Shown here: in pieces, positions 6,383 to 31,322 of the stretch | Layout: each line of letters opens with the position of its first letter | Numbering within the stretch: position 1 is the stretch's first letter | NCBI GenBank assembly: GCA_002789635.1 | Contig: PFTQ01000002.1 | Coordinates: forward strand, 1 to 32,201 | Direction: 5' to 3' | Origin: Candidatus Aenigmarchaeota archaeon CG_4_9_14_3_um_filter_37_18 | Lineage (GTDB): Archaea; Aenigmatarchaeota; Aenigmatarchaeia; CG10238-14 | DNA: 32,201 bases | Notes under the pieces: model-generated | Databases searched by the model: none | Told to the model about the DNA's origin: nothing | The model's input: only the letters and a program-made list of their open reading frames with translations | Made by a program: the position numbers and the translations under genes

Positions 6383-6485
6383 AGTCCCTTCGTCTAGTGG
6401 TCAAGGATAGCGAGGTTTTAACCCTATAAGGCTTTGGTCGCTAGGAAGACACCCGTTGGCGGCGGTTCGAATCCGCCAGGGACTA
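6383..6485 (+). tRNA. tRNA-Gln(UUG) containing two introns (6413-6429 and 6438-6450)
   Basis: Acceptor AGTCCCT/AGGGACT plus A73, D arm GTCTAGTGGTCAAGGAT, T arm GGCGG-TTCGAAT-CCGCC. Removing 17-nt and 13-nt BHB introns gives anticodon arm GCGGG-CTTTGGA-CCCGT, with the archaeal Gln loop, and a 73-nt mature tRNA. Confidence 0.88.
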
Positions 6486-10808: not shown

Positions 10809-12380
10809 ATGAAGATGGGAAACAAAAAAGTGTGCAGGGAAATTATCGAGGAATTAATGGTTTTAGACAGCCTAGACGACAAAATAATAGATGAAATTGC
10901 CAAAAAAATTGCCAAAAAACATGGCTTAAGTGATATCCCGAATAAAGTGGATATATTAAGGTCTTGTAAAGAAAGTGAGAGTGAAAAGCTTAAGAAATAC
11001 CTGCAAACTAAACCATCCCGATCTATTTCCGGGGTTTCTGTTATAACTGTGGTTGCAAAACCAGCACCTTGCCCTGGAAAATGCATATACTGCCCTAAGG
11101 GAGCTAACGCGCCAAAGTCATACACTGGAATGGAGCCAGCTATCCAGCGGGGAATAAGGAATAATTATGACCCGCTCAGACAAACAAAAGATCGGCTTAA
11201 TCAATACAAACTTACAGGCCACCCTTCTGACAAGATAGAGGTAATAATTATTGGGGGGACGTTCCCAGCTCTAGAAAAGAACTACCAGAACTGGTTTGTT
11301 AAATGTATTTTTGATGCTCTCAACGGGAAAGAAAGTAAAACCTTGCTGGAAGCGCAGAAGTTGAATGAGTCTGCTGAGCATAGGTGCGTGGGGCTGACAA
11401 TTGAAACACGTCCGGACTACTGTTTTAAGGAACATATCAACCAAATGCTTGAATTAGGAACTACTCGGGTGGAAATAGGTGTTCAGTCAGTCTACGACGA
11501 GGTTTTGGAGAAAGTTAAGCGTGGGCATGATGTCAAAGCTGTGGTGCGTGCTACAAAACTTGCTAAAGACAGTGGATTAAAAGTGACTTATCATATGATG
11601 CCTGGCCTGTTCACTGATTTTAATAAGGATTTAGAGCAATTTAAAGTCTTATTTTCGGATGATAGGTTTAAGCCTGATTCACTTAAGATCTACCCTGTTC
11701 TTGTTATTCCTGAGACTGAACTTTATGAGTTGTGGAAGAAAGGTGAGTATAAGCCCATAAACACAGAAGAAGGGACTAAACTTATTTGTGAGGCGATGAA
11801 GCACATTCCCAAGTACTGTCGTGTAATAAGAGTGCAGAGAGATATCCCTAATAACAAAGTTGCTGCTGGAATCGACAAGAGTAATCTTCGCGAGCTTGTG
11901 GAAAAGGAGTGTGAAAGGGGAGGAGTGAGAATTCAGGAGATCAGATATAGGGAAGTTGGACATAAGATGGCTAAAGGAGTGATTCCTGATCCTGATAAGA
12001 TTAAACTGTGTAGAATGGATTATGATGCGTCAGGGGGAAAAGAAGTTTTTTTAAGTTTTGAAGATGTTAAAAATGATGTTTTGTTTGGTTTTATTAGGTT
12101 GAGAATTCCTAGTGAACCATTTAGGAAGGAGATTGATAATAAGACAGGATTAATTCGTGAATTGCATGTTTATGGCTCTGCTGTTCAAATCGGGAAGAAA
12201 AAAGAAAATGCATGGCAACATAAAGGTTTTGGAATGAAACTTTTACAAGAAGTTGAACGAATTGCTAAAGAAGAGTTTAGTGTGAAAAAGATGGTTGTTA
12301 TTTCTGGGGTTGGGGTCAGACCATATTATTATCGTCTAGGATATAAAGTTGACGGAATCTACGTTTCTAAATTTCTTTAA
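10809..12380 (+). CDS. elp3: Elp3 family tRNA uridine modification enzyme (radical SAM + GNAT)
   Basis: PCPGKCIYCPKG radical-SAM cysteines, ETRPDYC, TRVEIGVQS, and C-terminal acetyltransferase region QHKGFGMKLLQEVERIA. Confidence 0.97.
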   Translation: MKMGNKKVCREIIEELMVLDSLDDKIIDEIAKKIAKKHGLSDIPNKVDILRSCKESESEKLKKYLQTKPSRSISGVSVITVVAKPAPCPGKCIYCPKGANAPKSYTGMEPAIQRGIRNNYDPLRQTKDRLNQYKLTGHPSDKIEVIIIGGTFPALEKNYQNWFVKCIFDALNGKESKTLLEAQKLNESAEHRCVGLTIETRPDYCFKEHINQMLELGTTRVEIGVQSVYDEVLEKVKRGHDVKAVVRATKLAKDSGLKVTYHMMPGLFTDFNKDLEQFKVLFSDDRFKPDSLKIYPVLVIPETELYELWKKGEYKPINTEEGTKLICEAMKHIPKYCRVIRVQRDIPNNKVAAGIDKSNLRELVEKECERGGVRIQEIRYREVGHKMAKGVIPDPDKIKLCRMDYDASGGKEVFLSFEDVKNDVLFGFIRLRIPSEPFRKEIDNKTGLIRELHVYGSAVQIGKKKENAWQHKGFGMKLLQEVERIAKEEFSVKKMVVISGVGVRPYYYRLGYKVDGIYVSKFL

Positions 12381-13904
12381 TTTTTCTTTGAGATTCTTTG
12401 CCATTTTCAATTCTCTACTTAAACCCCATATCTTAATTAGCATATCTTTTTTGTCTAGATTAATCCTGAACCTCTTCATAGTATCATTTATTATACCTCT
12501 ATTATCTATCCCACCTCTACTTTGAATCAGAAAATCTTTTTTGACTAATCTATCCAGTTGTCTATGAACAACCTGTTTGTGTACATGAAATTTCTCACTC
12601 CAATCTCTTACAGTAAATTCTTTATTTTCAAAATATTTCATCTTCATTAATGTCTTAGTTTTCTGATGATTCAAAAATCCTCTTAGAAATTTTATTTTTT
12701 TAGATTCATTCGTAAGTTGGGGAATTTCAAATGCATCAAGTAAATGAAGTTTATAGAACTCATCCCATCCAAATATACATATATCATTCACACCTTCTCT
12801 GTATTTTATAACCAATCTCTCTAATAACCTCTTGATAAATTCCCGATCCATTGGTCTTATAGAACCAATAGATACACTGACTATAGATTTATTTTTTATG
12901 TAGACAGAACCTTCTCCTGCAATTAACCCTTTTAGCCAATCTATACACCATTTCCTTTTTGTTAGAACAATTTTTTTACTTTCTTCAAGTAAGCTTTTAA
13001 TCACACTTCTGAGAACAGTATTAGTTAGATACACTCCCATCAATCCATAATTTTCTTGTAATCTACTTCCAGAATTGGATATAGTCCTTATTCCAATACA
13101 CTTCTTATCTAGGGTTAACCAATCTGACCAAAATTTCAAACATTCTTGTTTGTTTTTACTTTTTCTTTCATTATGTTCTAAATAAAAACTTAGTTTAGGT
13201 TTTTCATCTAAAATTCCCTCCAACCATTCTAGAAATTTTTTCACTAAAATGGGCTCTGAATTTCCAAGACTAATCTTTGAATTATCACTCTTTTCCGAAA
13301 CTTTTGTATAACCCTCACCAAAATAAAGTGCACAACCTATCCAAAATACTTGATCCAATTTTACATATCTCTTAAGTCTCGTCTCTGATTTCTTCCAGCA
13401 TGCCTGTGACCATACACGTAAATTTTTATTTGAGAATTCTACAAAAATAGGATGTTGTTTTCTTGCTCTTCTACTTGGTAAAAGATGAGATGGTAATAAT
13501 GCTAACATGTCGATAATATCTTTTTCATTTTTTTTTCCAGAAAGATTTCCTTGGATATTGAATACCAATTTATTACGTAACATGGGATTTGCTGTTAGTG
13601 GGTTATACGCTATAATATGTCTATTTATTTCATCTAACTTGAATTCATCAAAACCACTTTCAATTAAAATATTTGAAATTTCCTCTATAACCCAATATGG
13701 AATGTAAATTTTCCAACCAGACACATGTTTTCCTTTTCTCCATCCTTTTACTGTTTCTCTCATTATTTTAGTGGGTTTCATTTTCCGAATTCTTGCTTTA
13801 TTTGACAAATATTCAGCAAAGGTAGTTTGGAACTTGAAGATTTTAATTATTCCACAAAAAAGTCTTTCTCTATATTTGTCTTCCAAATAGATACTAAAAT
13901 TCAT
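12336..13904 (-). CDS. LAGLIDADG-type homing endonuclease-like protein, free-standing, with C-terminal winged HTH
   Basis: Two LAGLIDADG-like motifs (WIGCALYFGEGYT and WLKGLIAGEGSV); C-terminal FTVRDWSEKFHVHKQVVHRQLDRLVKKDFLI. Confidence 0.82.
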   Translation of the reverse strand: MNFSIYLEDKYRERLFCGIIKIFKFQTTFAEYLSNKARIRKMKPTKIMRETVKGWRKGKHVSGWKIYIPYWVIEEISNILIESGFDEFKLDEINRHIIAYNPLTANPMLRNKLVFNIQGNLSGKKNEKDIIDMLALLPSHLLPSRRARKQHPIFVEFSNKNLRVWSQACWKKSETRLKRYVKLDQVFWIGCALYFGEGYTKVSEKSDNSKISLGNSEPILVKKFLEWLEGILDEKPKLSFYLEHNERKSKNKQECLKFWSDWLTLDKKCIGIRTISNSGSRLQENYGLMGVYLTNTVLRSVIKSLLEESKKIVLTKRKWCIDWLKGLIAGEGSVYIKNKSIVSVSIGSIRPMDREFIKRLLERLVIKYREGVNDICIFGWDEFYKLHLLDAFEIPQLTNESKKIKFLRGFLNHQKTKTLMKMKYFENKEFTVRDWSEKFHVHKQVVHRQLDRLVKKDFLIQSRGGIDNRGIINDTMKRFRINLDKKDMLIKIWGLSRELKMAKNLKEKLKKFRNVDSVNFIS

Positions 13905-24612: not shown

Positions 24613-26040
24613 ATGAGTATCACTAGTTCGTTTGGGAGAAAGGAAATACTGGATAAAATAAGTAATAAAAGAGTAATAATATCATCGGAACAAACAAGAG
24701 AGTTATTGTGGCTATCTAAAGTATCGATGAAAGTAAATAAGTGGAGTGATTTTTGCGAAAAAATGGACATTAGCATTTCTACCTTAAAGAAATGGAGAAA
24801 GGGTAAAAGTAGTATAGATGGTGATTTCTTAGGAAAAATTGTTAAACTGATTCCAGAAGAAAAATATTACTTGTTCAAAAATATGAAAATACTTGATAAA
24901 AATTGGGGAAGGTCAAAAGGTGGAAAAAAGAGTGTAGAGGCAAGAATTGAAAAATGGGGGGTGGAAGGTTTTAATAAACAACTTCTAGAAGCATCTCTCG
25001 CATCTGGTGGTTTTTTAAATTGGCATAAAACAATGAAGAGAAACCAGCCAAAAATGTATTCTGAAATTCAGAGAAAAAGATGGAAGAATTATATTGAAAT
25101 AATTAATAGGGATCCGAAGTTTCATCAAAGGAAAACGAAAACAATAATAGAAAGATTTGGGAAGGACTTTTTCACGAAGATTGGACTTAAAGGAGCTGAA
25201 TCGGGTAAAGTAAACGAGATTGAAAGAGCTGTAATCCATATCAACAAGAAACTATTTCCTTCGATTAAATTCAAAACCCACATGACATTATATGATGTTA
25301 ATTTAGATTGTGTTTATATCAAAAAACAAAAGATTATAGCTGTCGAAGAAATACTAGGATCAAGAAAAAATAGAAGTGTAACGTTTTTTGAATTAGCGAA
25401 TATTCTGGAAAAAAAGAGAGTACTGGAAAAAAACGGTCTTAAAGTTCCATTCTTTCTAACAACTCGATTCAAAACTCCATACCAAAGGTATTTCCACTGT
25501 GACGGTTGTTTATGGATGATAGACAACGATATAATACCTATATTTACCGATTTAGAATGGTCAATAAAAACCAAGCAAGAAATTATAGAAAAAAATTCAT
25601 ATGATCTTAAAAATATTGATAACTTTTGCAGGTCGATTATACAAAAGAATAAAAGTCGTATGAAATCGGGAGTCAAGATAGAAATTAACAGAAAATTTGA
25701 TTCTTTTGAACAAAGCGTGGATAATATCCTTAAAAAAAATGGTATTAAGACTGGTGGAAAAAGAGCCTTAAGGACGGTTTATAATACTTATATAGTCTCC
25801 GACAATTTTATGAAAGAAAAAAATACCGCTATTTTTATATCTAAAAGGCATATAGGAAGTATATTAGGAAACTGTTTAATTGCTAAATTATTGCTAGTTT
25901 CGCCAGTAAAAACAATAGGTATAATAATTTCTCCAAAGAGAGAAATAAAAAGGAAAATTGTTAAAAAGTTAATTGACTTATATGTGGATAAATTTTATTA
26001 TAACTTGAAAGAATTTGAAAAGGATTTAGAGGGCCGATAG
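24613..26040 (+). CDS. HTH-domain protein with possible restriction-endonuclease-like domain
   Basis: XRE-like HTH (WSDFCEKMDISISTLKKWRKGKSSIDGDFL); central LYDVNLDCVYIKKQKIIAVEEI resembles a PD-(D/E)XK core; the stop codon lies inside tRNA-Ala. Confidence 0.5.
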   Translation: MSITSSFGRKEILDKISNKRVIISSEQTRELLWLSKVSMKVNKWSDFCEKMDISISTLKKWRKGKSSIDGDFLGKIVKLIPEEKYYLFKNMKILDKNWGRSKGGKKSVEARIEKWGVEGFNKQLLEASLASGGFLNWHKTMKRNQPKMYSEIQRKRWKNYIEIINRDPKFHQRKTKTIIERFGKDFFTKIGLKGAESGKVNEIERAVIHINKKLFPSIKFKTHMTLYDVNLDCVYIKKQKIIAVEEILGSRKNRSVTFFELANILEKKRVLEKNGLKVPFFLTTRFKTPYQRYFHCDGCLWMIDNDIIPIFTDLEWSIKTKQEIIEKNSYDLKNIDNFCRSIIQKNKSRMKSGVKIEINRKFDSFEQSVDNILKKNGIKTGGKRALRTVYNTYIVSDNFMKEKNTAIFISKRHIGSILGNCLIAKLLLVSPVKTIGIIISPKREIKRKIVKKLIDLYVDKFYYNLKEFEKDLEGR

Positions 26041-26131
26041 ATCAACGGTAGATCAAGAATGCCGAAATCGCTTCCTTGGCAATAATTTACCAATCTGGAA
26101 GAGGCTTGGGGTTCAAATCCCCATCGGTCCA
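26031..26131 (+). tRNA. tRNA-Ala(GGC) containing two introns (about 26052-26066 and 26082-26095)
   Basis: Acceptor GGGCCGA/TCGGTCC with G3-U70; D arm GATC-AACGGTA-GATC; T arm TGGGG-TTCAAAT-CCCCA. Removing 15-nt and 14-nt BHB introns gives CTTCC-TTGGCAT-GGAAG and a 72-nt tRNA. Confidence 0.92.
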
Positions 26132-30548: not shown

Positions 30549-31166
30549 TTGAAAGTAAAAATCTTGAAAAAATCCAACGAAAGAATAGAATTTGAAGTAG
30601 AAGGATTAACACCTGGATTAGCAGGAGAATTAAGGAGAATAATGCTTTCTGAGATCCCGACAATGGCTATAGAGTGGGTCGACTTCCACAAGAACGATTC
30701 GATCATCTGGGATGAAATAATCGCAAGCCGCCTTGGCCTGATACCGTTAGTTTTCAATTCTAAATTGTATGGGATGAAAGATGAGTGCAAATGCGACGGC
30801 AAAGGATGCAGCAGATGCCAGGTCATGCTAGCGTTAAAAAAGAAAGGCCCTTGCATGGTATATTCCGAGGATCTTAAATCATCTGACAAGGAAGTCAAGC
30901 CAATCTACGGCAAGATACCGATTGTCGAATTGATGGATAACCAGGAGTTGGAGTTTGAAGCGACTGCGGAGCTAGGATTAGGAAAAGTCCACGCTAAATG
31001 GCAAGGCGCGGTAGTTGGGTATGAAGCCAGCCCGAAAAAAGACAAATACACCTTTATAGTTGAAACGGCTTGTGGGTTAAGCGCTGAAGATGTTGTAAAA
31101 AAGAGTTTTGAAGTCCTTCAGGAAAAGTTGAAAGATTTTGGCACTGATGTGGCAAGATTAAAATAA
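30549..31166 (+). CDS. rpoD: DNA-directed RNA polymerase subunit D (UUG start)
   Basis: EVEGLTPGLAGELRRIMLSEIPTMAIEWVDFHKNDSIIWDEIIASRLGLIPL; insert with Cys motif ECKCDGKGCSRC. Confidence 0.96.
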   Translation: MKVKILKKSNERIEFEVEGLTPGLAGELRRIMLSEIPTMAIEWVDFHKNDSIIWDEIIASRLGLIPLVFNSKLYGMKDECKCDGKGCSRCQVMLALKKKGPCMVYSEDLKSSDKEVKPIYGKIPIVELMDNQELEFEATAELGLGKVHAKWQGAVVGYEASPKKDKYTFIVETACGLSAEDVVKKSFEVLQEKLKDFGTDVARLK

Positions 31167-31190: not shown

Positions 31191-31322
31191 GCAGGGGTTG
31201 CCAAGTCTGGTCAAAGGCGCAGGATTCATTCGAATGCGAAACTCAGAATGCGAAACTTAAGAAAGCCACTTGGGAGATCCTGTCCGTTAGTCGGTCCGTG
31301 AGTTCGAATCTCACCCCCTGCA
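31191..31322 (+). tRNA. tRNA-Leu containing two introns; anticodon CAG or UAA depending on splice sites
   Basis: Acceptor GCAGGGG/CCCCTGC plus A73; Leu-type D arm GCCAAGTCTGGTCAAAGGC; stem CAGGA/TCCTG; long variable arm TGTCCGTTAGTCGGTCC; T arm GTGAG-TTCGAAT-CTCAC. BHB introns 31224-31240 + 31248-31276 (CAG) or 31224-31254 + 31262-31276 (UAA). Confidence 0.9.

What the first reader, a model, noticed from the sequence alone, without database searches (positions are those of the whole stretch)
31191..31322. tRNA-Leu gene that could be spliced to two different anticodons (CAG or UAA)
Seen directly: the anticodon region contains the tandem near-duplication GAATGCGAAACTCA|GAATGCGAAACTTA (31232-31259). 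It yields two anticodon loops, CTCAGAA (CAG) and CTTAAGA (UAA). In both options the first intron begins after G30, where exon CGCA can pair with either of the two TGCG copies, and the second intron ends at AG|A before TCCTG, where TGGG can pair with CTCA or, with more G-U pairs, CTTA. Option 1 removes 31224-31240 and 31248-31276. Option 2 removes 31224-31254 and 31262-31276 and gives CAGGA-CTTAAGA-TCCTG, which to my recollection matches a common archaeal tRNA-Leu(UAA) arm, including G37. Option 1 has the stronger central helix but an unusual A37 for Leu. Inference: either the duplication created a decoy, or one gene makes two isoacceptors by alternative BHB splicing, which I do not know to be described in this form.
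Basis: partly seen in the sequence, partly recalled or inferred. Interest (0 to 1): 0.93.

Follow-up and report, generated by a model that had tools for sequence, protein, structure and literature searches.

The report
One tRNA gene, two possible anticodons
In a group of tiny archaea, one leucine tRNA gene carries two alternative anticodon segments and appears able to be spliced two ways into two different leucine tRNAs, replacing two separate genes; this reading rests on comparative sequence evidence and has not been shown by RNA data.

Summary
The window (a MAG related to Candidatus Aenigmatarchaeota) holds a tRNA-Leu gene at 31191-31322, just downstream of rpoD, whose anticodon region is the 14-nt tandem near-repeat GAATGCGAAACTCA|GAATGCGAAACTTA.

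It is not an assembly error or a private decoy. The same double unit, CTCAG first and CTTAAG second, is kept in six genomes of four genera and two families, while the surrounding intron sequence varies. Strict bulge-helix-bulge enumeration gives both tRNA-Leu(CAG) and tRNA-Leu(UAA) in 6 of 6.

Relatives without the double unit have a separate UAA gene at the same rpoD site and, in 7 of 8, a separate CAG gene, usually 26-280 bp further on. The genomes with it have no separate CAG or UAA gene; four of them, one 97% complete, carry exactly UAG, GAG, CAA and this gene. The intron base facing anticodon position 34 is G, the only base pairing with both C and U, in 6 of 6 double genes against 1 of 8 single UAA genes.

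Best reading: alternative cis-splicing of one pre-tRNA into two isoacceptors. I found no described precedent; the nearest are shared split-tRNA halves. No RNA evidence exists.

The parts
31191..31322 (+). tRNA-Leu gene with two alternative anticodon segments (pre-tRNA, 132 nt; 86 nt mature in both splicing schemes)
   Evidence: RF00005 40.7 bits; Leu covariance model 95.1 bits; BHB enumeration
31191..31223 (+). 5' exon, nt 1-30 (acceptor 5' strand, D arm, CAGG of the anticodon stem)
   Evidence: sequence; splice sites from BHB enumeration
31218..31221 (+). CGCA: exon strand of the central helix of intron 1; can pair with either TGCG copy
31232..31245 (+). repeat unit 1, GAATGCGAAACTCA (first 3' splice site plus C32-U33-C34-A35 of the CAG form)
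   Evidence: the core TGCGARACTCAG is identical in six genomes except at R
31246..31259 (+). repeat unit 2, GAATGCGAAACTTA (second 3' splice site plus C32-U33-U34-A35 of the UAA form)
   Evidence: conserved in six genomes
31224..31240 (+). intron 1, CAG route (17 nt, position 30/31)
   Evidence: strict BHB, inner helix 3 bp
31241..31247 (+). alternative middle exon for CAG: A31 + CTCAGA (nt 32-37)
31248..31276 (+). intron 2, CAG route (29 nt, canonical position 37/38)
   Evidence: central helix CTCA:TGGG, no inner helix
31224..31254 (+). intron 1, UAA route (31 nt, position 30/31)
   Evidence: strict BHB
31255..31261 (+). alternative middle exon for UAA: A31 + CTTAAG (nt 32-37)
   Evidence: the same anticodon arm occurs in single UAA genes of relatives
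31262..31276 (+). intron 2, UAA route (15 nt, canonical position 37/38)
   Evidence: central helix CTTA:TGGG
31271..31274 (+). TGGG: intron strand of the central helix of intron 2; second base (31272) faces nt 34 and as G pairs with C34 or U34
   Evidence: TGGG in 6 of 6 double genes; A at the facing base in 7 of 8 scorable single UAA genes
31277..31322 (+). 3' exon, nt 38-73 plus long variable arm (A38, TCCTG, variable arm, T arm, acceptor 3' strand, A73)
30549..31166 (+). rpoD-like gene (archaeal RNA polymerase subunit D) directly upstream; marks the conserved site of the tRNA-Leu(UAA) gene
   Evidence: tblastn with this protein finds its homologue beside the UAA or double gene in 14 relatives, including 4 of the other 5 double genes (not G010)

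Best explanation
The gene is a dual tRNA-Leu gene. One pre-tRNA is spliced by the archaeal tRNA-splicing endonuclease in two mutually exclusive ways. If CGCA (nt 25-28) pairs with the first TGCG and TGGG pairs with CTCA, introns of 17 and 29 nt leave and tRNA-Leu(CAG) results. If CGCA pairs with the second TGCG and TGGG pairs with CTTA, introns of 31 and 15 nt leave and tRNA-Leu(UAA) results. The choices are coupled: taking the second TGCG removes CTCA, and pairing CTCA with TGGG buries the second TGCG in intron 2. Shown here: the sequence, its conservation, the geometry of both routes, no separate CAG or UAA gene detected in the carriers, and the shared rpoD site. Inferred: that both products are made, charged by LeuRS and used, and that the unit arose by a 13/14-nt slippage duplication in a two-intron UAA gene, which by itself makes the upstream loop CTTAG (UAG), followed by T to C.
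For: (1) Conserved double unit, CTCAG then CTTAAG, in six genomes, with flanking intron sequence variable. (2) Both products pass the strict BHB test in 6 of 6 genes and are the only products common to all. (3) In G000, G001, G002 (97% complete) and G006 the Leu genes are exactly UAG, GAG, CAA and this one, by covariance model and by a search for Leu-type 3' ends. A separate CAG gene is found in 0 of 6 carriers and 7 of 8 non-carriers of the family (Fisher p 0.005, not corrected for relatedness). (4) In G005, G007, G008, G009 and G011 separate UAA and CAG genes stand 26-280 bp apart downstream of rpoD; the double gene stands alone at that site in G000, G001, G002, G006 and G017. (5) The intron base facing nt 34 is G in 6 of 6 double genes, A in 7 of 8 scorable single UAA genes. 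(6) CUG is 12% and UUA 25% of Leu codons in 21 window genes. (7) Both routes fold within about 1.6-4.9 kcal/mol of each other in the five family genes.
Against: No RNA data. U34 of tRNA-Leu(UAG) might read CUG, so CAG is not strictly required. The genomes are MAGs of 72-97% completeness; in G002 other isoacceptors, among them the essential Ser(UGA), were not found either, so detection is imperfect. G010 (72%) holds 3' tRNA fragments resembling a Leu(CAG) gene of its relative G008, and G017 also lacks detectable UAG and GAG genes, so absence of CAG means little in those two. Intron 2 on the CAG route has little or no inner helix, and the endonuclease in the family is a single ~180-aa protein, the size of alpha4 enzymes, whose tolerance of relaxed motifs is unknown here. 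Carriers are not one clade on an RpoD tree that is poorly resolved.
Confidence: 0.72

Rival explanations
1. Only tRNA-Leu(UAA) is made. The upstream unit is a relic or a structural element of intron 1, and the CAG isoacceptor was lost because tRNA-Leu(UAG) reads CUG by wobble.
For: UAA must be made, since no other UAA gene is found in the carriers. The UAA route is slightly more stable in five of six genes. Wobble reading of CUG by U34 is possible in principle (general knowledge).
Against: The upstream CTCAG, including its C34, is invariant in six genomes while the rest of the intron drifts. Intron 2 keeps G rather than A opposite nt 34. CUG is 12% of Leu codons in the window genes. Carrier G002 keeps C34 tRNAs in most other boxes, e.g. 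Val CAC, Thr CGT, Gly CCC, Pro CGG, Arg CCT.
Confidence: 0.2
2. Recursive splicing: intron 1 is removed in two steps (17 nt, then 14 nt) using both TGCG copies, always ending in UAA; the duplication gives a second acceptor but no second tRNA.
For: After removal of the 17-nt intron, CGCA can still pair with the second TGCG, so re-splicing is geometrically possible (read from the sequence; one search gives the sites).
Against: Does not explain why CTCA stays pairable with TGGG, why the anticodon-like CTCAG is fixed, or why the CAG gene is missing.
Confidence: 0.05
3. The repeat is an assembly or strain-mixture artefact.
For: The assembly is a MAG of 67 contigs.
Against: Found in six separate genomes, four genera, two families, with differing flanks.
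Confidence: 0.01
4. Only tRNA-Leu(CAG) is made and UAA is the decoy.
For: CTCA:TGGG is the stronger central helix.
Against: UUA is 25% of Leu codons in the window genes and no other UAA gene was found in the carriers. CTTAAGA in a CAGGA/TCCTG arm is the UAA arm of the single genes at the same rpoD site.
Confidence: 0.02

Closest known systems
tri-split and split tRNA genes of Caldivirga maquilingensis (Fujishima et al. 2009, as reviewed in PMC4033280)
   Same: Shared tRNA body pieces combined with different anticodon-bearing pieces give synonymous tRNAs, through BHB motifs
   Different: There the pieces are separate transcripts joined in trans; here both anticodon segments lie in one transcript and are chosen in cis
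split tRNA-Glu of Nanoarchaeum equitans (one 3' half used by two 5' halves; PMC4033280)
   Same: Two isoacceptors share part of their coding sequence
   Different: Trans-splicing of separately encoded halves; the anticodon difference lies on separate genes
archaeal tRNA genes with multiple BHB introns, including non-canonical positions (Sugahara et al., as reviewed in PMC4033280)
   Same: Two introns, at 30/31 and 37/38; the sister gene tRNA-Leu(CAA) and some single UAA genes have the same pair
   Different: Those give one product; here a duplicated acceptor-plus-anticodon unit gives two
mutually exclusive exons in spliceosomal pre-mRNA (general knowledge)
   Same: Tandem-duplicated alternative segments, one or the other included
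   Different: Protein endonuclease acting on RNA structure, no spliceosome; the alternative segment is 7 nt

Membership tests
archaeal tRNA-Leu gene | tRNA fold with long variable arm and Leu-type acceptor and T arms | tested here: met
archaeal tRNA-Leu gene | charging by leucyl-tRNA synthetase of both products | not testable with these tools
   both products share every base outside the anticodon loop; needs aminoacylation
BHB-intron tRNA gene | 3-nt bulges separated by a 4-bp central helix at each splice-site pair | tested here: met
   4/4 pairs for all four introns in all six genes
BHB-intron tRNA gene | inner helix flanking the motif (canonical hBHBh') | tested here: inconclusive
   2-4 bp for intron 1 in the five family genes, 1-2 bp in G017; 0-2 bp for intron 2 except 5 bp on the UAA route of G017; intron 2 of the CAA gene in G008 also has none
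BHB-intron tRNA gene | a splicing endonuclease in the genome | tested here: met
   PF01974 in 6 of 7 genomes tested, single ~180-aa copy in the family genomes with a hit, 409-aa protein in G017, none found in G006
split (trans-spliced) tRNA | 5' and 3' parts encoded at separate loci | tested here: not met
   one contiguous gene of 127-139 nt in six genomes
tRNA gene with alternative splicing to two isoacceptors | two BHB-valid products with different anticodons, conserved across genomes | tested here: met
tRNA gene with alternative splicing to two isoacceptors | both mature RNAs present in the cell | not testable with these tools
   needs tRNA sequencing
tRNA gene with alternative splicing to two isoacceptors | no separate gene for the second isoacceptor | tested here: inconclusive
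   none found in six carriers, convincing in G000, G001, G002, G006; MAGs incomplete, G010 and G017 uninformative

The most novel reading that the evidence does not exclude
A single tRNA gene is regularly spliced in cis, through two overlapping and competing bulge-helix-bulge motifs, into two functional isoacceptors with different anticodons (CAG and UAA), and has replaced two separate genes in these archaea.
Probability: 0.7. Interest if true: 0.93.

Novelty: new variant of a known kind. Interest (0 to 1): 0.88.

Why it matters
If true, one tRNA gene is not always one tRNA: an archaeon would choose an anticodon by alternative splicing of a tRNA. It would add a cis route to the known trans-splicing route for sharing tRNA parts, show how introns let small genomes merge genes, and give a compact system in which the supply of two isoacceptors depends on competing RNA folds. 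It also warns that gene-prediction tools, which assign one anticodon per gene, can misread tRNA complements: ARAGORN missed the gene in the window and gave Leu(UAA), Asp, Ser or Arg for its orthologues.

Tried and rejected
Assembly artefact: rejected by six-genome conservation. Chance: a CAG product appears in 0.2-0.5% of shuffles per gene, but chance products with other anticodons do occur (e.g. CAT in G000 and G001), so single-genome enumeration alone was not relied on. With the central helix relaxed to 3 of 4 pairs the enumeration yields many products and is uninformative.

A hidden CAG gene: a Leu covariance model and a search for Leu 3' ends, which would also show a split gene's 3' half, found none in G000, G001, G002 and G006. 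My first 3'-end pattern had a spacing error and is void. A looser phylum-wide pattern found the same six genes, plus a G007 UAA gene in which CTCAG is one arm of the intron-1 hairpin, with A opposite nt 34 and a separate CAG gene; the other hits look unrelated to tRNA by eye.

An RpoD tree did not resolve whether the double unit arose once. Literature searches found no cis alternative splicing of a tRNA; this library lacks most subscription papers.

Full report
What is there. The window is contig C62 of a 0.89-Mb MAG in 67 contigs, 86% complete. At 31191-31322, 24 bp after the end of an rpoD-like gene, lies a tRNA-Leu gene (RF00005 40.7 bits; Leu model 95.1 bits). ARAGORN in its default mode misses it. 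Its anticodon region is CAGG ATTCATTC GAATGCGAAACTCA GAATGCGAAACTTA AGAAAGCCACTTGGGAGA TCCTG. Every coordinate in the finding is right.

Two products. I enumerated all one- and two-intron excisions that meet a strict bulge-helix-bulge rule (four pairs in the central helix, 3-nt bulges cut after the second base) and leave a five-pair stem and a seven-base loop with U33. In the window gene these include CAGGA-CTCAGAA-TCCTG (CAG) and CAGGA-CTTAAGA-TCCTG (UAA), plus two products with anticodon CAT. In both Leu products intron 1 is at 30/31 and intron 2 at the canonical 37/38. The tRNA-Leu(CAA) gene of the same genome has the same two positions, with a long inner helix in intron 1, so the architecture is ordinary for this lineage. 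What is unusual is the duplicated acceptor-plus-anticodon unit.

Conservation. The core pattern TGCGARACTCAG-TGCGARACTTAAG occurs in 6 of 160 genomes of the phylum: three species of the window's genus, two other genera of the family, and one genome of another family in the same order. In the six aligned genes the two core blocks and TGGG are invariant apart from a one-base bulge alternation and one single-base indel, while the inner loop of intron 1 and the rest of intron 2 vary in length and sequence. CAG and UAA are the only products common to all six. Shuffling the rest of intron 1 gives a CAG product in 0.2-0.5% of trials per gene.

Gene complement. With a Leu-specific covariance model I listed Leu genes in 14 genomes. 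G000, G001, G002 and G006 each have exactly four: UAG, GAG, CAA and the double gene. A search for Leu-type 3' ends gives the same four, which also speaks against a trans-split CAG gene. Among eight family members without the double unit, all eight have a separate UAA gene and seven a separate CAG gene. CAG is 0 of 6 against 7 of 8, with two weak cases among the six: G010 is 72% complete and contains 3' tRNA fragments like a CAG gene of its relative G008, and G017 lacks detectable UAG and GAG as well. From completeness alone, missing CAG in G000, G001, G002 and G006 has a chance of about 2 in 10,000; this treats the genomes as independent, and detection is imperfect, since in G002 the essential Ser(UGA) was not found either (read).

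The site. The UAA gene sits beside rpoD in the relatives. In G005, G007, G008, G009 and G011 the CAG gene follows it at 26-280 bp (from the coordinates). In five of the six carriers (not G010) the double gene occupies that rpoD site, and no second Leu gene follows within the stretch read, about 0.9 kb in the window and 1.5 kb in the others. The simplest history, which is inference, is a two-intron UAA gene in which a 13/14-nt slippage duplication made a second unit. The duplication alone gives an upstream loop CTTAG (anticodon UAG), one T to C change gives CAG, and the neighbouring CAG gene then became dispensable. Whether this happened once is unresolved.

Intron 2. The intron base that faces nt 34 in the central helix must be G to pair with C34 and may be A or G for U34. 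It is G in all six double genes; in single UAA genes with a scorable intron it is A in seven and G in one (p 0.005, not corrected for relatedness). I assigned these by eye from the printed sequences, leaving out G004 as ambiguous and G003 as intronless.

Mechanism. CGCA (nt 25-28) can pair with either TGCG, and TGGG with CTCA or CTTA; the two consistent combinations give CAG or UAA. Forced folds of both are within 1.6-4.9 kcal/mol in the five family genes, UAA lower; in G017 CAG is lower by 6. These are model energies at 37 C without protein or modification. The endonuclease in the family genomes is a single protein of about 180 aa, the size of alpha4 enzymes; the four archaeal types and the link between specific loops and relaxed substrates are described in PMC12397907. 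Whether this enzyme tolerates the weak inner helix of intron 2 is unknown, but the CAA gene of G008 needs that tolerance too.

Known relatives. In Nanoarchaeum equitans one 3' tRNA-Glu half serves two 5' halves, and in Caldivirga maquilingensis anticodon-bearing pieces can be swapped to make synonymous tRNAs (PMC4033280). Both are trans-splicing. I found no paper describing one gene spliced in cis to two anticodons, with the limit that most subscription papers are not in this library. I therefore call it a new variant of a known kind: known machinery and known modular logic, in a new arrangement.

Verdict. Observation confirmed; interpretation supported by four lines of comparative evidence that are distinct but not statistically independent, because the genomes are related. 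Not proven without RNA.

Noticed in passing
window 6383-6485 and 26031-26131: Two further tRNA genes in the window with introns (Gln with anticodon TTG by ARAGORN; an Ala-like gene with probable introns in both the D and anticodon regions). The whole genome is rich in tRNA introns.
   Followed up: no
G042:C25:24472-24529 (L205): A tRNA-Leu(UAA) gene in another family has the anticodon segment ACTTAAG twice in tandem; both copies read UAA, and strict enumeration also allows a UAG product.
   Followed up: partly
G010:C86:452-472 (L202) and G010:C176:3841-3861 (L203): Isolated tRNA 3' ends without a 5' part, resembling the 3' end of a tRNA-Leu(CAG) gene of G008; possibly integration-site remnants or split-gene halves.
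   Followed up: no
G008:C8:444936-445021 (L129): G008 has a second tRNA-Leu(CAG) gene with an unusual D stem (C10) and one mismatch in the acceptor stem; G007 has a similar gene with an intron.
   Followed up: no
G000:C50:3391-3536 (L044) and G008:C8:381176-381301 (L140): Leu genes that appear to carry an additional intron in the variable arm.
   Followed up: no
G000:C50:797-914 (L032): A tRNA gene (Thr-like) with a run of N and a repeated T arm inside, an assembly gap within a tRNA gene.
   Followed up: no
G000 and G002 tRNA lists: No tRNA-Ser(UGA) gene was recognised in either genome although it should be essential; either missed or encoded unusually.
   Followed up: no
window 12336-13904 (-): ORF with motifs resembling LAGLIDADG homing endonucleases (GLIAGEGS, YFGEGY), by eye only.
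   Followed up: no
G017:C3:2572-3042 (L223): The splicing endonuclease of G017 is a 409-aa protein with two matches to PF01974, unlike the single ~180-aa protein of the window's family.
   Followed up: no
L077, L112, L052 (rpoD genes): The RpoD-like proteins of G003, G006, G008 and G017 are about 57 residues longer than that of the window.
   Followed up: no
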